The notes beneath the pieces are model-generated. The model was not told the origin of the DNA and did no database searches. It saw nothing but the letters and a program-made list of their open reading frames with translations. The translations under genes were made by a program, and so were the position numbers. This document shows positions 168 to 46,856 of a stretch of 47,865 nucleotides of DNA, in pieces (position 1 is the first letter of the stretch; each line of letters opens with the position of its first letter). The DNA is from Ruminococcus sp. (GTDB taxonomy: Bacteria; Bacillota; Clostridia; Oscillospirales; Ruminococcaceae): the NCBI GenBank assembly GCA_017470905.1, contig JAFUXL010000020.1, forward strand, positions 1-47,865. Direction: 5' to 3'.

Positions 168-1850
168 TTATTCTATTCCAACCTCGGGAAGAGAGGGGAT
201 TTCCGCCTTGTCTTCCTTAACGGTTTTCTTAGCCTGCATATAGTCGGGAAGCTCGATAAGGTCAAGCTCATCGACATACGCCTCTTTCCTCTTGGGCATA
301 GCCTCGACAGCGTGGTCAGCCTCTGCCATGAGAGCCTTTTTGTGTTCGGGTACATATGCCGCAAGGTCATCTGCATTGACATCGGCTGTGGTATACATTT
401 TTATGTTGGTTTTATATCTTTCGGCTGATGCAAGCCTGGACACATCGACTTCTTTGGTAACGCCCATTATATCCTGCTTTTTTTCGTGTTTATTAGCCTG
501 AAGATTACTTGCGTCAACCTGTTCGGTCTGTCTCATGTAGAATTTATTTAATTTATTCGCATCGTTCTGCTTTAATTTTGAGGCATCGACAAGGGGAGTG
601 TCTCCCATGTAGTCTGTTTTTTTCTTTTCATTGCGTTTAAGCTTTGAAAAGTCGAGACCGTCCGCCGAGAGGTCGCCCATATCTGTGACACTGTGCGAGG
701 ATTTTCCGAAGAAATCATCTGCGGAGTCGTCATGCTTTTTAGGCTTTCCGCCGTCAAAGAAATCCCAGAAATCATCGCCCGAGTTCTTTTTCTTTTCAGG
801 TTCGATTTTTTTCGGTTCAGGCGGAGCATTTACCTGCGGAATATTCACTGCGGCATTCTGAGGCTGACCGTATATCGGCATATCGCTCTGGTCATAGCCC
901 ATTATCTGCGGCTGGTTATTGTACATCATCGGCTGACCATATATCGGCATACCGCTCTGGTCGTAGCCTATTATCTGCGGCTGGCTGTACATCATCGGCT
1001 GACCGTACACAGGCATACCGCTGCGGTCATAGCCTATTATATGCGGCTGGTTATTGTACATCATCGGCTGACCGTATATCGGCATACCGCTTGGGTCATA
1101 GCCCATTACCTGCGGCTGGCTGTACATCATCTGCTGATTTTGCACACCCTGCATATTCATATTGGGCATATTCTGCATATTACGGTTTGCATTCATCTGT
1201 CCGTTCTGCATACCCTGCATATTCATGCCGGGCATATTCTGCATATTACGGTTTGCATTCATCTGTCCGTTCTGCATACCCTGCATATTCATGCCGGGCA
1301 TATTCTGCATATTACGGTTTGCATTCATCTGCCCGTTCTGCATACCCTGCATATTCATATTGGGCATATTCTGCATATTACGGTTTGCATTCATCTGTCC
1401 GTTCTGCACACCCTGCATATTCATATTGGGCATATTCTGCATATTACGGTTTGCATTCATCTGTCCGTTCTGCATACCCTGCATATTCATCTGCGGCATA
1501 CTGCGGTTGTTATTAATCTGCCGGTTAGGCATTGAAACTCTTGCGGTATCAAGCTTCGGAATATAAGGCTCGTCATACATACTGAAATCAAATTCCTCGT
1601 CGGTATCATTCAGTTCGTCAGCCGTATATATATCGGAGGCTGCGTTTGACGGTGCAAGGTCTCTTATAACGAAAGTGCCTGCGCCGAAAGTAAATCCCGA
1701 TTTATTGTCGGAAAATTCTTCTTCGGTATGATAGCCGCCCATATCGACCTGTTCATAATTGACCTCCTGCGGATTTTCAAGGCTGCTTCCGCATTTCACG
1801 CAAAACTTGAAACCTCTTTCGTTATTTGTTCCGCACGAATGGCAAACCAT
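168..1850 (-). CDS. Zinc-ribbon protein with Met/Asn/Gln-rich tandem repeats
   Basis: 560 residues starting at ATG 1850, with a GGGGGGA-like ribosome site just upstream. The N-terminus has two CxxC pairs (CHSC near residue 4, CVKC near residue 18), the signature of a small zinc ribbon. An acidic region follows, then five 22-residue repeats rich in Met, Asn and Gln plus a partial sixth, then four ~22-residue repeats of the form QPMMY..QP..GYD.SGMP.YG. A lysine-rich linker comes next. The C-terminal part holds about five degenerate ~24-residue units containing VDAS.L (for example VDASKL, VDASNL, VDVSRL). There is no signal peptide or membrane segment, so it is probably cytoplasmic. I do not recognise a function. 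The low-complexity repeats suggest a scaffold or self-associating protein, which is inference. It appears monocistronic with its own promoter. Confidence 0.8.
   Translation of the reverse strand: MVCHSCGTNNERGFKFCVKCGSSLENPQEVNYEQVDMGGYHTEEEFSDNKSGFTFGAGTFVIRDLAPSNAASDIYTADELNDTDEEFDFSMYDEPYIPKLDTARVSMPNRQINNNRSMPQMNMQGMQNGQMNANRNMQNMPNMNMQGVQNGQMNANRNMQNMPNMNMQGMQNGQMNANRNMQNMPGMNMQGMQNGQMNANRNMQNMPGMNMQGMQNGQMNANRNMQNMPNMNMQGVQNQQMMYSQPQVMGYDPSGMPIYGQPMMYNNQPHIIGYDRSGMPVYGQPMMYSQPQIIGYDQSGMPIYGQPMMYNNQPQIMGYDQSDMPIYGQPQNAAVNIPQVNAPPEPKKIEPEKKKNSGDDFWDFFDGGKPKKHDDSADDFFGKSSHSVTDMGDLSADGLDFSKLKRNEKKKTDYMGDTPLVDASKLKQNDANKLNKFYMRQTEQVDASNLQANKHEKKQDIMGVTKEVDVSRLASAERYKTNIKMYTTADVNADDLAAYVPEHKKALMAEADHAVEAMPKRKEAYVDELDLIELPDYMQAKKTVKEDKAEIPSLPEVGIE
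868..1133 (-). repeat. Four tandem coding repeats, Tyr/Pro/Gly-rich
   Basis: Four copies of a 66-69 bp unit inside the zinc-ribbon gene encode QPMMY..QP..(G)YD.SGMP.YG. Variation between copies (NN or S after MMY, P/R/Q before SG) shows divergence after duplication. Confidence 0.85.
1140..1500 (-). repeat. Five-plus tandem 66-bp coding repeats, Met/Asn/Gln-rich
   Basis: Near-identical 66-bp units encode MNMQG(M/V)QNGQMNANRNMQ and the following NMP(N/G). Copies differ by a few bases, so the array is recent or actively homogenised. The 66-bp register keeps the reading frame when unit number changes. It ends in a truncated sixth unit. Confidence 0.9.
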
Positions 1851-1933: not shown

Positions 1934-2017
1934 GAGTTTTTCGCAAAATTATGCATATCATAAAAAAATAGCAAGTATCATTTGTACATATTGCATACCA
2001 GAGAGTATACAGTAATT

Positions 2018-2054
2018 TTTATATTTTGTCCTCTGACTGCGGTGGTGGGACAAA
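2018..2054. repeat. Dispersed GC-rich palindrome family, copy A
   Basis: Carries the shared flank TTTTATATTTTGTC followed by an imperfect palindrome whose outer arms TTTGTCC and GGACAAA pair (2025-2054). It belongs to the intergenic family described in the findings. The rest of 1851-2270 is AT-rich, with a TATAAT at 2214-2219 that probably belongs to the vanY promoter. No gene is seen. Confidence 0.55.
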
Positions 2055-2243
2055 GACAAAATACAGAAATTTTTGGAGATACCGAAGATTTTTCCGTCCG
2101 CAGAAAATACGCCGCATTGTCAGTTTTGATAAATATGAATTATATATAATGCCGTTTTTCGGTAAAGATATAAAAATTTTCCTTACCCCCTGTATTTTTA
2201 AAAAAAGGTATGTTATAATGTAATTCAGAGATAATTTAACTTT

Positions 2244-4043: not shown

Positions 4044-4062
4044 TTATTTTAACTTAAAATAA

Positions 4063-4122
4063 TATCTCCCAACCTGCGGCGGAGAGACAAAAAAATAAAA
4101 ATATCCCACGCATTTCTGTGGG
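4063..4122. repeat. Dispersed palindrome family, copy B, plus adjacent hairpin
   Basis: TCTCC..CCTGCGGCGGAGA (4065-4085) followed by GACAAAAAAATAAAAAT, the reverse complement of the family's TATTTTGTC-type flank. A second small stem CCCAC/GTGGG lies at 4105-4122. Confidence 0.55.
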
Positions 4123-7783: not shown

Positions 7784-7812
7784 CCGTACCCTCCGCCGAC
7801 GGCGTGGATACA
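7784..7812. repeat. Dispersed palindrome family, copy C
   Basis: CTCCGCCGACGGCG core with ATACAGACAAAT after it (reverse complement ATTTGTCTGTAT), in the leader of mazF. The rest of 7728-7922 is AT-rich and shows no gene. Confidence 0.45.
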
Positions 7813-7922
7813 GACAAATCTGCTCAGTCATAGTGCATATATTGCTGATATTATTATTGACAGCACTGTTATTTTTATACTGTCCCGTTTATTATATGCG
7901 GAGAATTATTTTGAGGACACAA

Positions 7923-7955: not shown

Positions 7956-9098
7956 TTATTTCCTGCGAATGACCTTTGTGCTGCTGTCAAAAGAGGGATA
8001 ATCACCATATGAAATTTCGCAGTTTTTCGGTATTGTTACTGATGTGAGACTGTCACAATTTTTGAATGCACCTGCAAGAATTTCCTCAACGCTGTCAGGG
8101 ATTATTACTGATGTAAGGTTTTTACAACCATAAAAAGCTTCACTCTTTATACTTTTAACACCGTTCGTTATTGTTACTGATGTAAGGTTCATACAATTGT
8201 AAAAAGCACTATCACCGATACTTGTAACGCTGTTTGGTATTGTTATTGATGTAAGATTTTCACAATTAGGAAAAGCATATCCATTGACACTTCTAACCTT
8301 ATGCGGAATGATAACATCACCTCCGGAACCCTTGTATTCAATTAAAATTCCGTTTATTGTCACAAAGTCATCGGGATAGCTTTCAAGCCATTTTGTGCCT
8401 GTAAAAACATAGCCACCAATACTTGTAACATTGTTCGGTATTGTTACTGATGTAAGGCTTACACAACCATAAAAAACACCGTCACCGATACTTGTAACAC
8501 TGTTTGGTATTGTTACTGATGTAAGGCTTTCGCAATATTCAAAAGCATCCTCACCGATACTTGTAACACCGTCGGGGATTACCACATTTCCACCCGAACC
8601 CTGATATTTTTTCAGAACTCCGTCCTCTATAATAAAATTACTCGGATAAAATGAAACCGCAGGAATTTTCTTATCACTGTCTTTGCTGACAGGATTCGAT
8701 ACAAAGTCTGTGGAAATATAAACCTTTTTCAGACCCTCACCGCCTGCCTGTACATCTTTGTTTTTATCAGGTGCTGACGGAAATCCTATGGGAATGTTGA
8801 CCCTTCTTGAAACATTGTTTTCGTTTTCTGCTTTCTTCCTGCCGATTTCCGCCATTAACTCCTCAATTTCTGCCTTTAATGCATTCACGCTGTCCGAGAG
8901 GGATTTTTTTGCCCCGGCTTGTGTTCTCATTTCGTTGATTTCTGCCTTTAAGGACTGCATTTCTGCCTTTAATGTACTCACATCATCGGACAACACTTTT
9001 TCCTCCGCAGACAATTTTGCAATTGTCTGCCTGATTTCGTGAATTTCGTCCTGACAAATCTTTAAAGCCGTGTCTGAATTTTTACCTAAAAATCCCAT
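7956..9098 (-). CDS. BspA-type leucine-rich-repeat protein with coiled-coil N-terminus
   Basis: 380 residues from ATG 9098, which has GGAGGT seven bases upstream. An upstream frame to 9131 lacks a suitable site. Residues ~10-95 form a coiled coil with reiterated LKAEI.EL heptads, then a ~50-residue linker. From about residue 145 to 370 there are 23-residue LRR_5 repeats of the form SVTSIG..AFYGC.SLTSVTIPN, interrupted by two YKGSGG(D/N)VVIP turns. LRR_5 proteins are usually surface adhesins, but I see no signal peptide, anchor or membrane segment, so this one may be cytoplasmic or exported another way. It lies 53 bp behind polA on the same strand and may be cotranscribed with it. No function can be assigned. 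Confidence 0.8.
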   Translation of the reverse strand: MGFLGKNSDTALKICQDEIHEIRQTIAKLSAEEKVLSDDVSTLKAEMQSLKAEINEMRTQAGAKKSLSDSVNALKAEIEELMAEIGRKKAENENNVSRRVNIPIGFPSAPDKNKDVQAGGEGLKKVYISTDFVSNPVSKDSDKKIPAVSFYPSNFIIEDGVLKKYQGSGGNVVIPDGVTSIGEDAFEYCESLTSVTIPNSVTSIGDGVFYGCVSLTSVTIPNNVTSIGGYVFTGTKWLESYPDDFVTINGILIEYKGSGGDVIIPHKVRSVNGYAFPNCENLTSITIPNSVTSIGDSAFYNCMNLTSVTITNGVKSIKSEAFYGCKNLTSVIIPDSVEEILAGAFKNCDSLTSVTIPKNCEISYGDYPSFDSSTKVIRRK

Positions 9099-9151
9099 GA
9101 TTTTTACCTCCATAATTCCGAATTTAATCATTCCTCCGGCTCGCTGTTTTG

Positions 9152-17241: not shown

Positions 17242-17267
17242 TTAAAAATCAATAAATTATGAACAAA

Positions 17268-17313
17268 AATTTTATATTTTGTCTTTACTCCCCCTCGCCT
17301 GCGGCGGAGGGGG
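17268..17313. repeat. Dispersed palindrome family, copy D
   Basis: AATTTTATATTTTGTCTTTA flank followed by CCCCCTCGCC-TGC-GGCGGAGGGGG (17290-17313, one bulged base). It is the clearest single copy of the family and lies between recG and the regulator promoter. Confidence 0.7.
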
Positions 17314-17386
17314 AACAGTATTTTTTATTGTATATTATCAGGAAAAATTTTAAATTTGCTCAATAATAGAATTTAACCTGAAATTA

Positions 17387-22036: not shown

Positions 22037-22073
22037 AATATAATCCCGGACATAAAATATATCAGAAGCCGTG

Positions 22074-22093
22074 TTCTCCGCCTGCGGCTGGGA
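22074..22093. repeat. Dispersed palindrome family, copy F
   Basis: TTCTCCGCC-TGC-GGCTGGGAA, about 30 bp upstream of the holB start codon. Confidence 0.5.
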
Positions 22094-22125
22094 ATACAAG
22101 AATATATAATTTTAAGGTGAATATA

Positions 22126-23106: not shown

Positions 23107-23126
23107 AATATTTCAGAAAGCTGTAA

Positions 23127-23148
23127 TCCTCCGCCTGCGGCGGCAGGA
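23127..23148. repeat. Dispersed palindrome family, copy G
   Basis: TCCTCCGCC-TGC-GGCGGCAGGA, in the 91-bp holB-ricT gap. Confidence 0.6.
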
Positions 23149-23197
23149 TACAGGATATAAAATTATTGATTACAATACTTTGATAAGGAGTTGAAAA

Positions 23198-24064: not shown

Positions 24065-24711
24065 TGAAGAAAATCAACTACGGAAAAATCCTCGATGATA
24101 AAATACAGGAGTTAAAAACATCGGGGCATAAGCCCTCTCTCCTGCTCCATGCCTGCTGTGCGCCGTGCAGCAGTCATACACTTACGGTGCTTTACAATTA
24201 TTTCGATATAATATTATATTTCTTCAACCCGAATATTTCCCACGAAGAGGAATACCTGTACCGCTGCGGTGAATTAAAACGCCTGGTTTCCGAAATGAAT
24301 ATGAATATAAATATCATCGAGGAAAGCTATGACCCTGCACCCTTTTACGAGCTTGCAAGGGGACTTGAAAATCTCCCCGAAAGGGGCGAAAGATGCAGGA
24401 AATGTATATCGTTCCGATTGGAAAAAACCGCAGAAAAGGCTAAAAGTATCGGTGCGGATATGTTCACCACAACCCTTACCATAAGCCCTCACAAGGACTG
24501 TCAGTTCATAAACCAATGCGGAGGGGAAATATCGAAAATATACGGCATTGAATATCTGTATTCGGATTTCAAGAAGCATGACGGATATAAGCATTCAGTA
24601 GAGCTTTCAAAGAAATATAATCTTTACAGACAAGATTACTGCGGCTGTGTATACAGCAAGCTTACAAAAAACAATATCTCCGCCGCCGCAGACGGAGGAG
24701 ATAAAATTTAA
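24064..24711 (+). CDS. queH: Epoxyqueuosine reductase QueH
   Basis: 215 residues. QueH converts epoxyqueuosine to queuosine in tRNA and substitutes for QueG. The Fe-S and zinc cysteine motifs are present: HACCAPCSSH near residue 29, ERCRKCISFR near 110, and YCGCVYS near 193. TTTLTISPHKDCQ is also family-typical. The start overlaps the ricT stop codon by one base. The last ~15 residues (AAADGGDKI and preceding) are encoded by a copy of the dispersed GC-rich palindrome, so the natural C-terminus probably used to end earlier. Confidence 0.92.
   Translation: MKKINYGKILDDKIQELKTSGHKPSLLLHACCAPCSSHTLTVLYNYFDIILYFFNPNISHEEEYLYRCGELKRLVSEMNMNINIIEESYDPAPFYELARGLENLPERGERCRKCISFRLEKTAEKAKSIGADMFTTTLTISPHKDCQFINQCGGEISKIYGIEYLYSDFKKHDGYKHSVELSKKYNLYRQDYCGCVYSKLTKNNISAAADGGDKI
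24676..24702. repeat. Dispersed palindrome family, copy H, inside queH
   Basis: ATCTCC-GCCGCCGCAGACGGA-GGAGAT. It supplies the last codons of queH. Confidence 0.55.
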
Positions 24712-25540: not shown

Positions 25541-25582
25541 AAAGAACACCGCCGCAAGCTCTTGCCTGCGGCAGCGTTCTTT
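25541..25582. terminator. Bidirectional terminator
   Basis: AAAGAACaCCGCCGCAAG and CCTGCGGCaGcGTTCTTT form a long stem. It ends the holB-DUF4274 operon on plus and the candidate small RNA on minus, where TTTTTATAT follows. Confidence 0.85.
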
Positions 25583-26590: not shown

Positions 26591-26634
26591 TTAGATTGTT
26601 TGTGATAATATACAGAAAATATTATAAAAGCAAC

Positions 26635-26675
26635 ATCTCCCCTCGCATGAGGCGAGGGGAGATAAAGACAAATAT
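26635..26675. repeat. Dispersed palindrome family, copy I (inverted orientation)
   Basis: Perfect 12-bp arms ATCTCCCCTCGC and GCGAGGGGAGAT (26635-26663) followed by AAAGACAAATATAAAAAT, the reverse complement of the family flank. It lies in the leader of the 36-residue peptide gene. Confidence 0.7.
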
Positions 26676-26692
26676 AAAAATGGGGAATTTAC

Positions 26693-31333: not shown

Positions 31334-31380
31334 GCTTGAATTTAAGCATTGCTGTAAATGAGTATTTTAAAACCATGCAC

Positions 31381-31477
31381 AAAAATTTTTATATTTTGTT
31401 TTTCTTCCCCCTCCACGGCGGAGAGAACAGTATCTTTTATATTTTGTCTTTCTCCCTCCGCCAAGGGCGGAGGGAGA
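31381..31477. repeat. Dispersed palindrome family, two tandem copies (J1, J2)
   Basis: J1: TTTTATATTTTGTTTTTCTT, then CCCCCTCCACGGCGGAGAGAACAGTATC (31401-31433). J2: TTTTATATTTTGTCTTTCTC, then perfect arms TCTCCCTCCGCC and GGCGGAGGGAGA (31451-31477). The shared 5' flank defines the unit as more than a bare hairpin. The rest of 31334-31524 is AT-rich with no gene. Confidence 0.75.
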
Positions 31478-31524
31478 GTTTCTTTTATATTATAAATAAT
31501 AATTTTATTTATTCAATCACAGTA

Positions 31525-45384: not shown

Positions 45385-45398
45385 ACGAGTAAAAAATC

Positions 45399-45423
45399 AT
45401 CTCTCCGCAAACGGCGGAGGGAT
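45399..45423. repeat. Dispersed palindrome family, copy L
   Basis: ATCTCTCCGC and GCGGAGGGAT around AAACG, in the leader of cysS directly before its ribosome site. Confidence 0.6.
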
Positions 45424-45443
45424 TAAATAAAAGGAGAATGTTT

Positions 45444-46856
45444 ATGCAGATTTACAATTCACTTTCGCACAAAAAGGAAGAATTTATCCCCGTTCAGGAG
45501 GGCAAGGTCAGTATGTACACCTGCGGCCCTACGGTCTATCACTATGCCCATATCGGCAATCTGAGAAGCTATATAATGGAGGATATACTCGAAAAATATC
45601 TCAGGTTCACGGGCTTTGACGTAAAAAGGGTCATGAATATAACAGATGTAGGTCATCTCACAAGCGACGGCGATACGGGCGACGACAAAATGCTCAAGGG
45701 TGCAAAGCGTGAGCATAAGACCGTCATGGAAATTGCAAAATTCTATACCGATGCATTCTTCTCCGACTGCAAAAAACTCAACATCAAGACCCCCGATGTC
45801 GTAGTCCCGGCGACCTCATATATAGACGAATTTATCCGTGTAATATCCGTACTCATGGACAAGGGCTATGCCTATGGAGCAGGCGGAAACATCTATTTCG
45901 ACACCTCAAAGCTTGAAAACTACTACGTTTTCAACGACTTCAGGGAGGAGGATTTGGCTGTCGGTGTGCGTGAGGGCGTTGAAGAGGATAACAATAAGAA
46001 AAACCAAGCCGATTTTGTTTTATGGTTTACCAAATCCAAATTTGACGACCAGGAACTTAAATGGGAAAGTCCGTGGGGCATAGGCTATCCGGGCTGGCAT
46101 ATCGAGTGTTCGTGCATAAGCATGAAAAATCTCGGCGAATACCTCGATATTCACTGCGGAGGAATTGACAATGCTTTCCCCCACCATACAAACGAAATTG
46201 CACAGAGCGAAGCCTATCTCGGTCATAAGTGGTGCAATTACTGGTTCCATGTTCTTCATCTCAATACAAATTCGGGAAAGATGAGCAAATCAAGCGGAGA
46301 ATTTCTCACAGTCTCACTCCTCGAAGAAAAGGGTTATGACCCCTTGGTATACAGATTTTTCTGCCTACAGTCGCACTACAGAAAATCCCTCGTTTTCGAC
46401 TGGGAAAACCTCAATAACGCAAAGGCTGCATATGAAAAAATCCTCGACAGGATTATACCGCTTTTATCAGAAAACAATTCCGGAAATACAGATAATGCGG
46501 AATATGACCGCCTTATGAAAATTTTCTGCGATGCGCTCGACAACGATTTGAATACCGCTATGGCAGTAACCGCCGTTTACGATGTGCTGAAATCCAATGC
46601 AAACGCAGCAACAAAGCTTGCGCTTATCAGGAAATTTGACGAGGTTCTCGGACTTGACATGATTAAAAACGCAGAAATCAAAAACAGCGAAAATTCAGAC
46701 GATATTCCGCAGGAAATACTCGACCTCGCAGAACAGAGAAAACAGGCTAAGAAAGACAAAAATTTCGCCCTCGCTGACGAAATAAGAGACAAAATTTCCG
46801 CCCTCGGCTATAATATCAAGGATACAAGACAGGGTACGGAGATAAGCAGAAAATAA
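45444..46856 (+). CDS. cysS: Cysteinyl-tRNA synthetase
   Basis: 470 residues from ATG 45444, eight bases after AAAAGGAG; the ATG at 45438 is too close to it. Class I synthetase that charges tRNA(Cys). Family marks: MYTCGPTVYHYAHIGN (zinc Cys plus the HIGH-type motif as YAHIGN), PGWHIECSCISM and GGIDNAFPHHTNEIAQSEA (further zinc ligands), and GKMSKSSGEF (KMSKS). The C-terminal anticodon-binding helical region ends with QRKQAKKDKNFALADEIRDKISALGY. The mshC and cysE neighbours common in other genomes are absent. Confidence 0.97.
   Translation: MQIYNSLSHKKEEFIPVQEGKVSMYTCGPTVYHYAHIGNLRSYIMEDILEKYLRFTGFDVKRVMNITDVGHLTSDGDTGDDKMLKGAKREHKTVMEIAKFYTDAFFSDCKKLNIKTPDVVVPATSYIDEFIRVISVLMDKGYAYGAGGNIYFDTSKLENYYVFNDFREEDLAVGVREGVEEDNNKKNQADFVLWFTKSKFDDQELKWESPWGIGYPGWHIECSCISMKNLGEYLDIHCGGIDNAFPHHTNEIAQSEAYLGHKWCNYWFHVLHLNTNSGKMSKSSGEFLTVSLLEEKGYDPLVYRFFCLQSHYRKSLVFDWENLNNAKAAYEKILDRIIPLLSENNSGNTDNAEYDRLMKIFCDALDNDLNTAMAVTAVYDVLKSNANAATKLALIRKFDEVLGLDMIKNAEIKNSENSDDIPQEILDLAEQRKQAKKDKNFALADEIRDKISALGYNIKDTRQGTEISRK

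What the first reader, a model, noticed from the sequence alone, without database searches (positions are those of the whole stretch)
17268..17313. A dispersed GC-rich palindrome family with AT-rich flanks across the window
Seen: at least thirteen short palindromes with the core CTCCGCC-TGC-GGCGGAG occur near 2025, 4065, 7790, 17290, 19504, 22074, 23127, 24676, 26635, 31401, 31451, 45399 and 47537. Several share a TTTTATATTTTGTCTTT flank on one side (2018, 17268, 31385, 31435), reversed at 4085 and 26664. They are almost confined to gaps between genes, often in 5' leaders, while surrounding DNA is AT-rich. This density (about one per 3.7 kb) suggests a REP/MITE-like element or a shared RNA processing or protein-binding site. 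Copies near 25541 and 3392 may have been adopted as terminators.
Basis: seen in the sequence. Interest (0 to 1): 0.72.

Follow-up and report, generated by a model that had tools for sequence, protein, structure and literature searches.

The report
Mini-transposon family with self-rewriting hairpin
The scattered GC-rich palindromes are the centres of a 140-base mini-transposon that has filled many gaps between genes of one species (probably a Ruminococcus); its hairpin changes sequence quickly while its two halves keep matching, and between genes read in one direction it nearly always lies with its terminator-like side pointing backwards.

Summary
All 13 positions match one profile above a reversed-window control, two of them marginally; the two "adopted terminators" (25541, 3392) do not clearly. 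The palindrome is the centre of a ~140-bp element: 132 copies in 833 kb of this genome, none in the reversed control, about 320 extrapolated. It is a MITE, not a REP: target duplications mostly of 7 bp, a short gap without it at holB-PSP1 in seven congeners, and ends matching a 1.34-kb IS4-type insertion sequence of congeners that was not found in this incomplete genome. No full-length match in 124 congeners.

Two properties are unusual. Stems differ among copies about 2-3 times more than the flanking arms, yet the halves change together, and 36 of 56 loops are TGC (15) or its exact reverse complement GCA (21): the footprint of template switching. The sense strand resembles an intrinsic terminator (57 of 74; antisense 1 of 74), and between co-directional genes 58 of 65 copies are antisense. 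Transposition is well supported; template switching and purging are inferred.

The parts
17254..17365 (+). best copy in the window: model positions 17-136 of 138; hairpin about 17289-17314; left end missing
   Evidence: 77.8 bits; lies antisense between two - strand genes (response regulator and RecG)
31355..31439 (+). copy with intact left end and a weak hairpin, right arm lost
   Evidence: 58.9 bits; hairpin score 5.25
31435..31519 (+). second copy, adjoining the end of the first; perfect 12-bp stem, right end kept
   Evidence: 37.8 bits; stem (e65)
26591..26681 (-). copy with a perfect 12-bp stem
   Evidence: 41.8 bits; stem (e58)
2004..2076 (-). decayed copy; the flanks on both sides of the hairpin are nearly inverted copies of each other
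   Evidence: 27.0 bits; inverted repeat I6
24651..24711 (-). decayed copy overlapping the 3' end of the queH reading frame, which ends in codons from the element
   Evidence: 23.6 bits; none of the 9 congener queH tails printed shows the hairpin (by eye)
23107..23167 (-). decayed copy in the holB-PSP1 gap
   Evidence: 19.8 bits; gap 91 bp here, 13-27 bp in 7 congeners
22055..22113 (-). decayed copy upstream of holB
   Evidence: 18.5 bits
47516..47565 (-). decayed copy, hairpin GTGTCTC...GAGACAC
   Evidence: 15.2 bits, E 0.0007 in the window alone
4054..4102 (-). decayed copy
   Evidence: 14.4 bits, E 0.0013
45391..45448 (-). decayed copy between a + strand ORF and cysS
   Evidence: 13.9 bits, E 0.0017
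7786..7818 (-). hairpin remnant, marginal
   Evidence: 10.8 bits, E 0.016; reversed-window maximum 2.3 bits
19507..19540 (-). hairpin remnant, marginal
   Evidence: 9.0 bits, E 0.058

Best explanation
The palindromes are the centres of a non-autonomous mini-transposon (MITE) of about 140 bp. Shown: its outer parts are versions of the left and right ends of an IS4-type insertion sequence found in congeners, and insertion duplicated mostly 7 bp of AT-rich target. Inferred: that element's transposase spread the MITE in trans in this species. The middle is a GC hairpin in AT-rich DNA. In the copies the stem has diverged more than the flanks while the halves stayed complementary, and the loop exists in two exactly inverted forms; I infer that replication stalls at the hairpin and template switching copies one arm onto the other and flips the loop. 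With the run of T after it, the hairpin resembles a one-way intrinsic terminator; I infer that copies whose terminator pointed along transcription between co-transcribed genes were mostly purged, which leaves antisense copies. My odds: MITE of IS4-type parentage 0.93; DNA-level template switching as the main cause of stem change 0.6 (lowered from 0.65 when I rechecked that the four inner pairs are largely conserved); terminator purging as the main cause of the orientation bias 0.55.
For: Copies: 132 in 833,450 bases, 0 in the reversed control. Ends: left 33 nt 91-94% identical to ends found in G048, G112, G124 and G079, running into a transposase gene in G124 and G079; right end shares CTATRATTGAGC...TGTTCGT...CACAAAA-like sequence in position with the insertion-sequence right ends (aligned by eye). 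Duplications: 7 of 32 copies with a strict 7-bp direct repeat, 0.10 expected; 3 of 32 with 6 bp, 0.06 expected. Gap without element. Stems: self-complementarity 8.72 versus 5.95 for swapped arms, 0 of 2000 permutations; 53 cells changed on both sides versus at most 28 in 1000 shuffles; pairwise edits per nt 0.31/0.35 in stem arms versus 0.10/0.19 in AT arms, Mantel r 0.71. Loops: GCA 21, TGC 15 of 56, differing at all three positions; the inverse pairs TAC 4/GTA 2 and, once each, ACA/TGT, ATA/TAT and GCC/GGC also occur. Orientation: 58 antisense, 7 sense between co-directional genes, p 4e-11; no bias relative to the regional coding strand for divergent (18:22) or convergent (6:8) gaps. Terminator asymmetry: 57 versus 1 of 74.
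Against: No transposase of this type was found in this genome, though it is only 74% complete. The stem pairs nearest the loop are largely conserved (pairs 1-4: 44, 41, 37 and 38 of 45), so a constraint on the core is possible. Element density per kb of gap is nearly equal in co-directional (65 in 47.9 kb), divergent (40 in 30.0 kb) and convergent (14 in 9.7 kb) gaps, whereas pure purging should thin the co-directional ones. The orientation bias is already present in full-length copies (14:3) and not clearly stronger in partial ones (44:4). RNA-level selection on the stem is not excluded: among antisense copies wobbles lean 14:8 the way it predicts, not significantly. The arms tree is star-like and cannot count loop flips. 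The profile contains the hairpin, which favours finding copies that keep it; by the left arm alone (446 kb) 9 of 13 copies have a strong hairpin, 3 a weak one and 1 none. Stem edits are anchored at loops of differing length, which inflates them somewhat; the unanchored measure (nine copies) gives 0.35 versus 0.12 and 0.21.
Confidence: 0.73

Rival explanations
1. The hairpin is kept by selection on an RNA (mRNA stabiliser, processing site or terminator) or on a bound protein; paired changes are ordinary compensatory mutations.
For: Paired changes; inner four pairs largely conserved; hairpin scores do not fall in copies with decayed arms, though the profile favours that; 32 of 58 antisense copies lie within 60 bp of a predicted start; wobbles in antisense copies lean 14:8 that way.
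Against: Stems as a whole differ more than the flanks, not less; the loop occurs as its exact reverse complement, which stem selection does not predict; T:G and C:A mismatches are equal overall (32 versus 34).
Confidence: 0.28
2. REP or REPIN elements moved by a RAYT (TnpA-REP).
For: Short GC palindromes, hundreds of copies, intergenic.
Against: Only a 75-aa Y1 transposase ORF beside TnpB pieces in the genome; IS4-type ends and 7-bp duplications; no GTAG or CGTC tag noticed by eye at the base of the hairpins listed, not scanned for.
Confidence: 0.02
3. The orientation bias comes from directed insertion (for example the left end preferring to face a ribosome-binding site), not from purging of sense copies.
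For: Nearly equal density in all gap types and bias already in full-length copies (14:3).
Against: No integration mechanism of this kind is known to me for IS4-type elements (recall); the terminator asymmetry gives a direct reason for purging.
Confidence: 0.35
4. The GC hairpin is an independent mobile element that also inserts by itself, and sits in the MITE by chance.
For: Many hairpins have no obvious arms, and one MITE copy lacks the hairpin (L022).
Against: Many hairpins without obvious arms still carry remnants of MITE arms in register; only 5 of 124 congeners have any match to the core at one mismatch, 1-2 each.
Confidence: 0.05

Closest known systems
Insertion sequences of the IS4 family, subgroup ISPepr1 (De Palmenaer 2008, PMC2266710, passages read)
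   Same: Relative of the parent: YREK signature read by eye (YVSRWEIEVYFRDCK), 5'-CT ends, AT-rich targets, 7-bp duplications at two copies
   Different: 1335 bp instead of 1500-1600; terminal consensus YT-AA-YTT not matched; 9-bp repeat at one copy; the best NCBIfam model is IS701, far below its cut-off, but IS701 duplicates 4 bp
Bacterial MITEs in general (definition from recall)
   Same: Short, non-coding, terminal repeats of an insertion sequence, target duplications, many copies, intergenic
   Different: Hypervariable self-matching central hairpin and one-way terminator-like structure with strong orientation bias; no such description turned up in searches (listings only, of an open-licence library)
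REP elements and RAYTs (PMC3733652, abstract and outline read)
   Same: GC palindromes, intergenic, hundreds of copies
   Different: No intact RAYT found, DDE-type ends and duplications
Template-switch footprints in inverted repeats (PMC8604942 passages; PMC8794818 abstract and start of introduction)
   Same: Arm homogenisation and spacer inversion
   Different: There inferred from compared strains or reconstructed gene histories; here seen across many paralogous copies in one genome

Membership tests
MITE | short, no coding capacity, defined ends | tested here: met
   138-nt consensus; 32 nearly full-length copies among 132 in 833 kb
MITE | terminal inverted repeats shared with an autonomous element | tested here: met
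MITE | target-site duplication | tested here: met
   of 32 copies with both ends, 7 at exactly 7 bp and 3 at 6 bp; 0.10 and 0.06 expected; 11 of 32 show no repeat of 5 bp or more
MITE | insertion polymorphism or empty site | tested here: met
   one locus, between species: of 22 loci examined, 1 is the window's own (gap 91 bp), 7 congeners have 13-27 bp, 2 have 388 and 105 bp, 7 gave negative values, 4 no upstream gene, 1 of another family 29 bp. A second locus gave no synteny. Strains of the species itself were not available
MITE | transposition in trans by the parent transposase | not testable with these tools
   needs an assay; transposase not found in the assembled genome
IS4 family, ISPepr1 subgroup (parent) | YREK motif | tested here: met
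   read by eye in the 393-aa ORF of L091
IS4 family, ISPepr1 subgroup (parent) | 7-8 bp duplications, CT ends | tested here: met
   two insertion-sequence copies with 7 bp and one with 9 bp, by eye; MITE copies
IS4 family, ISPepr1 subgroup (parent) | size 1500-1600 and end consensus YT-AA-YTT | tested here: not met
   1335 bp, CTATAAATGAGC; so filed as IS4-type, not as an ISPepr1 member
IS701 (parent) | 4-bp duplication; NCBIfam cut-off | tested here: not met
   7 bp; 61 bits against a cut-off of 150 (N-terminal 268 aa only)
REP | associated RAYT | tested here: not met
   genome 74% complete
REP | GTAG or CGTC tag | tested here: inconclusive
   none noticed by eye; no scan made
template-switch footprint | arm homogenisation | tested here: met
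template-switch footprint | spacer (loop) inversion | tested here: met
   GCA 21/TGC 15 of 56; 5/5 of 17 among copies with at least 60 nt of arms, whose orientation is surest
template-switch footprint | repeated flips on a tree | tested here: inconclusive
   star-like tree of 35 copies, 28 of 32 inner branches open

The most novel reading that the evidence does not exclude
One genome carries about 320 copies of one mini-transposon hairpin, and many of them have been independently rewritten and flipped by replication template switching faster than the surrounding sequence mutates: a natural replicate experiment showing that stem-preserving double changes can arise in bulk without RNA-level selection.
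Probability: 0.47. Interest if true: 0.72.

Novelty: new variant of a known kind. Interest (0 to 1): 0.57.

Why it matters
Paired changes in stems are usually taken as proof of a functional RNA. Here many copies of one short element show paired changes and loop inversion with more divergence than their flanks, which makes the template-switch alternative directly testable and warns against reading covariation in repeat families as RNA function. The orientation bias may also show how a mobile element that resembles a terminator becomes tolerable between co-transcribed genes.

Tried and rejected
REP/RAYT: rejected. Rfam: no match in the window at gathering thresholds. Genome-contig scan with a 43-nt pattern (one N): nothing. 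The G002 match (L071) lies inside an ORF and I take it as unrelated. cysS synteny test: no upstream homologue in 24 of 24 loci. Replication-strand cause of the orientation bias: not supported. Wobble test for RNA-level selection: no preference overall (32:34). Loop flips on a tree: unresolved. One script timed out with no output and one stopped on an error after printing its binomial tests. A simple hairpin scan was superseded by the profile. Rows dropped: hits not spanning model positions 40-88 or under 30 bits, and 1 of 89 as overlapping, one of 19 young copies with a stem under 7 pairs; one search read loops only where the three inner pairs were intact (56 of 126). Literature searches returned no paper; others gave listings in which I saw nothing on this element.

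Full report
Observation. The window holds 18 matches to CTCCGCC-NNN-GGCGGAG with up to three mismatches, 0.95 expected. In the whole assembled genome (2,035,711 bases, 32 contigs, 73.75% complete) the core with up to two mismatches has 102 matches, at least four places being listed on both strands, and its reversed control 0; the flank TTTTATATTTTGTCTTT with one mismatch has 43, control 1. Fetched copies (displayed) showed that the flank belongs to a longer element. An iterated nucleotide profile gave a 138-nt consensus that begins ATAAATGAGCATTTT and ends TTTGCTCAATCAT, with the GC hairpin in the middle. In an 833,450-base sample of the genome (three whole or nearly whole contigs C1, C4, C6, parts of C8 and C28, and the window) there are 132 elements at E 1e-3, 32 of them nearly full length, and 0 in the reversed control; 8 of the 132 lie in the window. 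This extrapolates to about 322 in the assembly; the elements fill 12.5% of the bases outside predicted ORFs.

What it is. The 141-nt element was sought in all 125 genomes held for the genus, the window's own included (E 1e-5, the six best candidates of each genome scored). Full-length matches occur only in the window's genome; five of the 124 others have a single-end or partial match. In four of these (G048, G112, G124, G079) the match is to the outer 33 nt of the left end; G079 has a second, of 37 nt. In G124 and G079 it leads directly into a transposase gene, cut short in G124, and in G048 it carries the same upstream stretch at a contig end. In G112 the end lies near a contig edge and I read it as the same element. 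The fifth, G002, is inside an ORF. The transposase was found in 3 of 125 genomes and not in the window's own, where PF01609 also finds nothing; that genome is incomplete. In named genome contigs 12 loci encode relatives, with titles of Ruminococcus, Oscillospiraceae or Clostridia metagenome-assembled genomes; one title names a rumen. L145 (Ruminococcus sp. RGIG5027) carries the same protein, 100% identical, and the same flanks as the copy in G017, a congener of the window's genome, so I infer that the genus is Ruminococcus; the source of the window's own genome was not shown. The complete copy in L091 runs from 1075 to 2409, 1335 bp. Both ends read CTATAAATGAGC or a close variant, and the subterminal sequences (AATGCACAAAA on both sides, GTTCGT on the right in several copies) lie at about the same distance as their counterparts in the mini-element (aligned by eye).

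Insertion. Of 32 copies with both ends, 7 have an exact 7-bp direct repeat at the predicted boundaries against 0.10 expected from swapped flanks, and 3 have 6 bp against 0.06; allowing small offsets, 21 of 32 have a repeat of 5 bp or more against about 3 expected, and 11 have none. Two insertion-sequence copies show 7-bp repeats (L151, L153) and one 9 bp (L145) (by eye); for the others a flank was missing or no repeat was seen. The holB-PSP1 gap that holds the element at 23107 is 91 bp here and 13-27 bp in seven congeners; of the other 14 loci examined, two had longer gaps (388, 105 bp), seven gave negative values that I could not use, four had no upstream gene, and one of another family had 29 bp. 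The element at 24651 overlaps the end of queH, so that the predicted protein ends in codons from the element. A second synteny test at cysS failed for lack of synteny in 24 of 24 loci.

Which transposase. The N-terminal 268 aa of the G079 transposase score 61 bits with NCBIfam IS701 (cut-off 150) and are just under the cut-off of Pfam DDE_Tnp_1. The 393-aa relative in L091 carries Y-(2)-R-(3)-E-(6)-K by eye. De Palmenaer et al. (PMC2266710, passages read) give YREK for IS4; 7-8 bp duplications, 5'-CT ends and AT-rich targets for its subgroup ISPepr1; and 4 bp and no full YREK for IS701. Size and end consensus do not fit ISPepr1, so I file the parent as IS4-type only.

The hairpin. In 88 copies pooled from loci chosen by the hairpin and loci not so chosen, the best self-complementarity of the middle is 8.72 on average and 5.95 when right arms are swapped among copies; none of 2000 permutations reaches the observed mean. 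In 45 distinct copies with 3-nt loops, 94.9% of cells in ten pairs are paired (shuffle mean 85.7%, maximum 88.0%), and 53 cells changed on both sides (maximum 28 in 1000 shuffles). Stem boundaries were chosen per copy, which favours pairing somewhat. The four pairs nearest the loop are largely conserved (44, 41, 37 and 38 of 45); change is concentrated further out, at pairs 5, 6, 9 and 10. Among 18 copies whose AT arms are at least 90% like the consensus, 17 left stems are distinct, and pairwise edits per nucleotide are 0.305 and 0.350 in the stem arms against 0.102 and 0.189 in the adjacent AT arms; left and right stem distances correlate (r 0.71, p 0.0002). These stem segments are anchored at loops of differing length, which adds edits; the unanchored middle of nine copies gives 0.347 against 0.118 and 0.206. 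Finding copies by the left arm only, in 446 kb, 9 of 13 have a strong hairpin (score 10 or more), 3 a weak one (5.3-6.3) and 1 none (the last is the same place as L022). The loop, read in the element's orientation where the inner three pairs are intact (56 of 126 copies with a readable middle), is GCA 21 and TGC 15, then TAC 4, GTA 2, AAA 2 and twelve singletons. GCA and TGC are reverse complements and differ at all three positions. Among copies with at least 60 nt of arms, whose orientation is surest, they are 5 and 5 of 17.

Reading of the hairpin. Template switching between arms of an inverted repeat homogenises the arms and inverts the spacer (PMC8604942, passages), and can create and maintain RNA stems (PMC8794818, abstract). 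Both signatures are present. Selection on an RNA would explain paired changes and the conserved inner pairs, but not greater divergence than the flanks or exact loop inversion. A wobble test found T:G and C:A mismatches equal (32 and 34 in 70 copies) and 8 to 14 among antisense copies, not significant. A tree of the arms is star-like and cannot show repeated flips, so two ancestral loop forms followed by amplification are not excluded.

Orientation. The sense strand has a T-run of at least 4 within 12 nt after the stem in 57 of 74 copies with a good hairpin, the antisense strand in 1 of 74; the terminator scan reports the element's hairpin on the sense strand only in the three copies tried. 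Of 132 elements, 119 lie between ORFs by a crude rule (ORFs of at least 90 aa) and 13 inside. Between co-directional genes 58 are antisense and 7 sense (p 4e-11). Relative to the regional coding strand, elements in divergent gaps (18:22) and convergent gaps (6:8) show no bias, and where local and regional strands differ the elements follow the local one (14:4, p 0.03), which speaks against replication as the cause. In divergent gaps 26 of 40 are antisense to the nearer gene (p 0.08). Against simple purging: densities per kb of gap are nearly equal in all gap types (65 in 47.9 kb, 40 in 30.0 kb, 14 in 9.7 kb; gaps of 60 bp or more), and full-length copies already show 14:3.

Verdict. A new mini-transposon family of a known kind, seen in one species of 125 examined, with an unusually informative hairpin. 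The transposon reading is firm; template switching and terminator purging are the best but unproven mechanisms.

Noticed in passing
window 1061-1566: Tandem 66-nt units (90-93% alike in the middle, 66-69% at the ends) inside the long ORF 168-1850 on the - strand, which begins with a zinc-ribbon domain.
   Followed up: no
window 7956-9131: BspA-type leucine-rich-repeat protein with 69-nt repeat units.
   Followed up: no
L085 1444-2777 (G000 contig C28): Degenerate IS200/IS605 element: a 75-aa TnpA ORF beside TnpB pieces in more than one ORF.
   Followed up: partly
L089 407-475 (G079): Sequence with the same left end (TATAAATGAGC...TGCACAAAAA) lies between two ORFs that both look like parts of an IS982-type transposase (that name from recall); it may be another mini-element of the family.
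   Followed up: partly
L022 166-270 and L139 8178-8276 (same place): A copy of the element that lacks the hairpin, 105 bp, with arms 93% like the consensus.
   Followed up: partly
L219, holB-PSP1 gap of G001: A 388-bp gap, half GC, with a long imperfect hairpin at the place used for the empty-site test in another congener.
   Followed up: no
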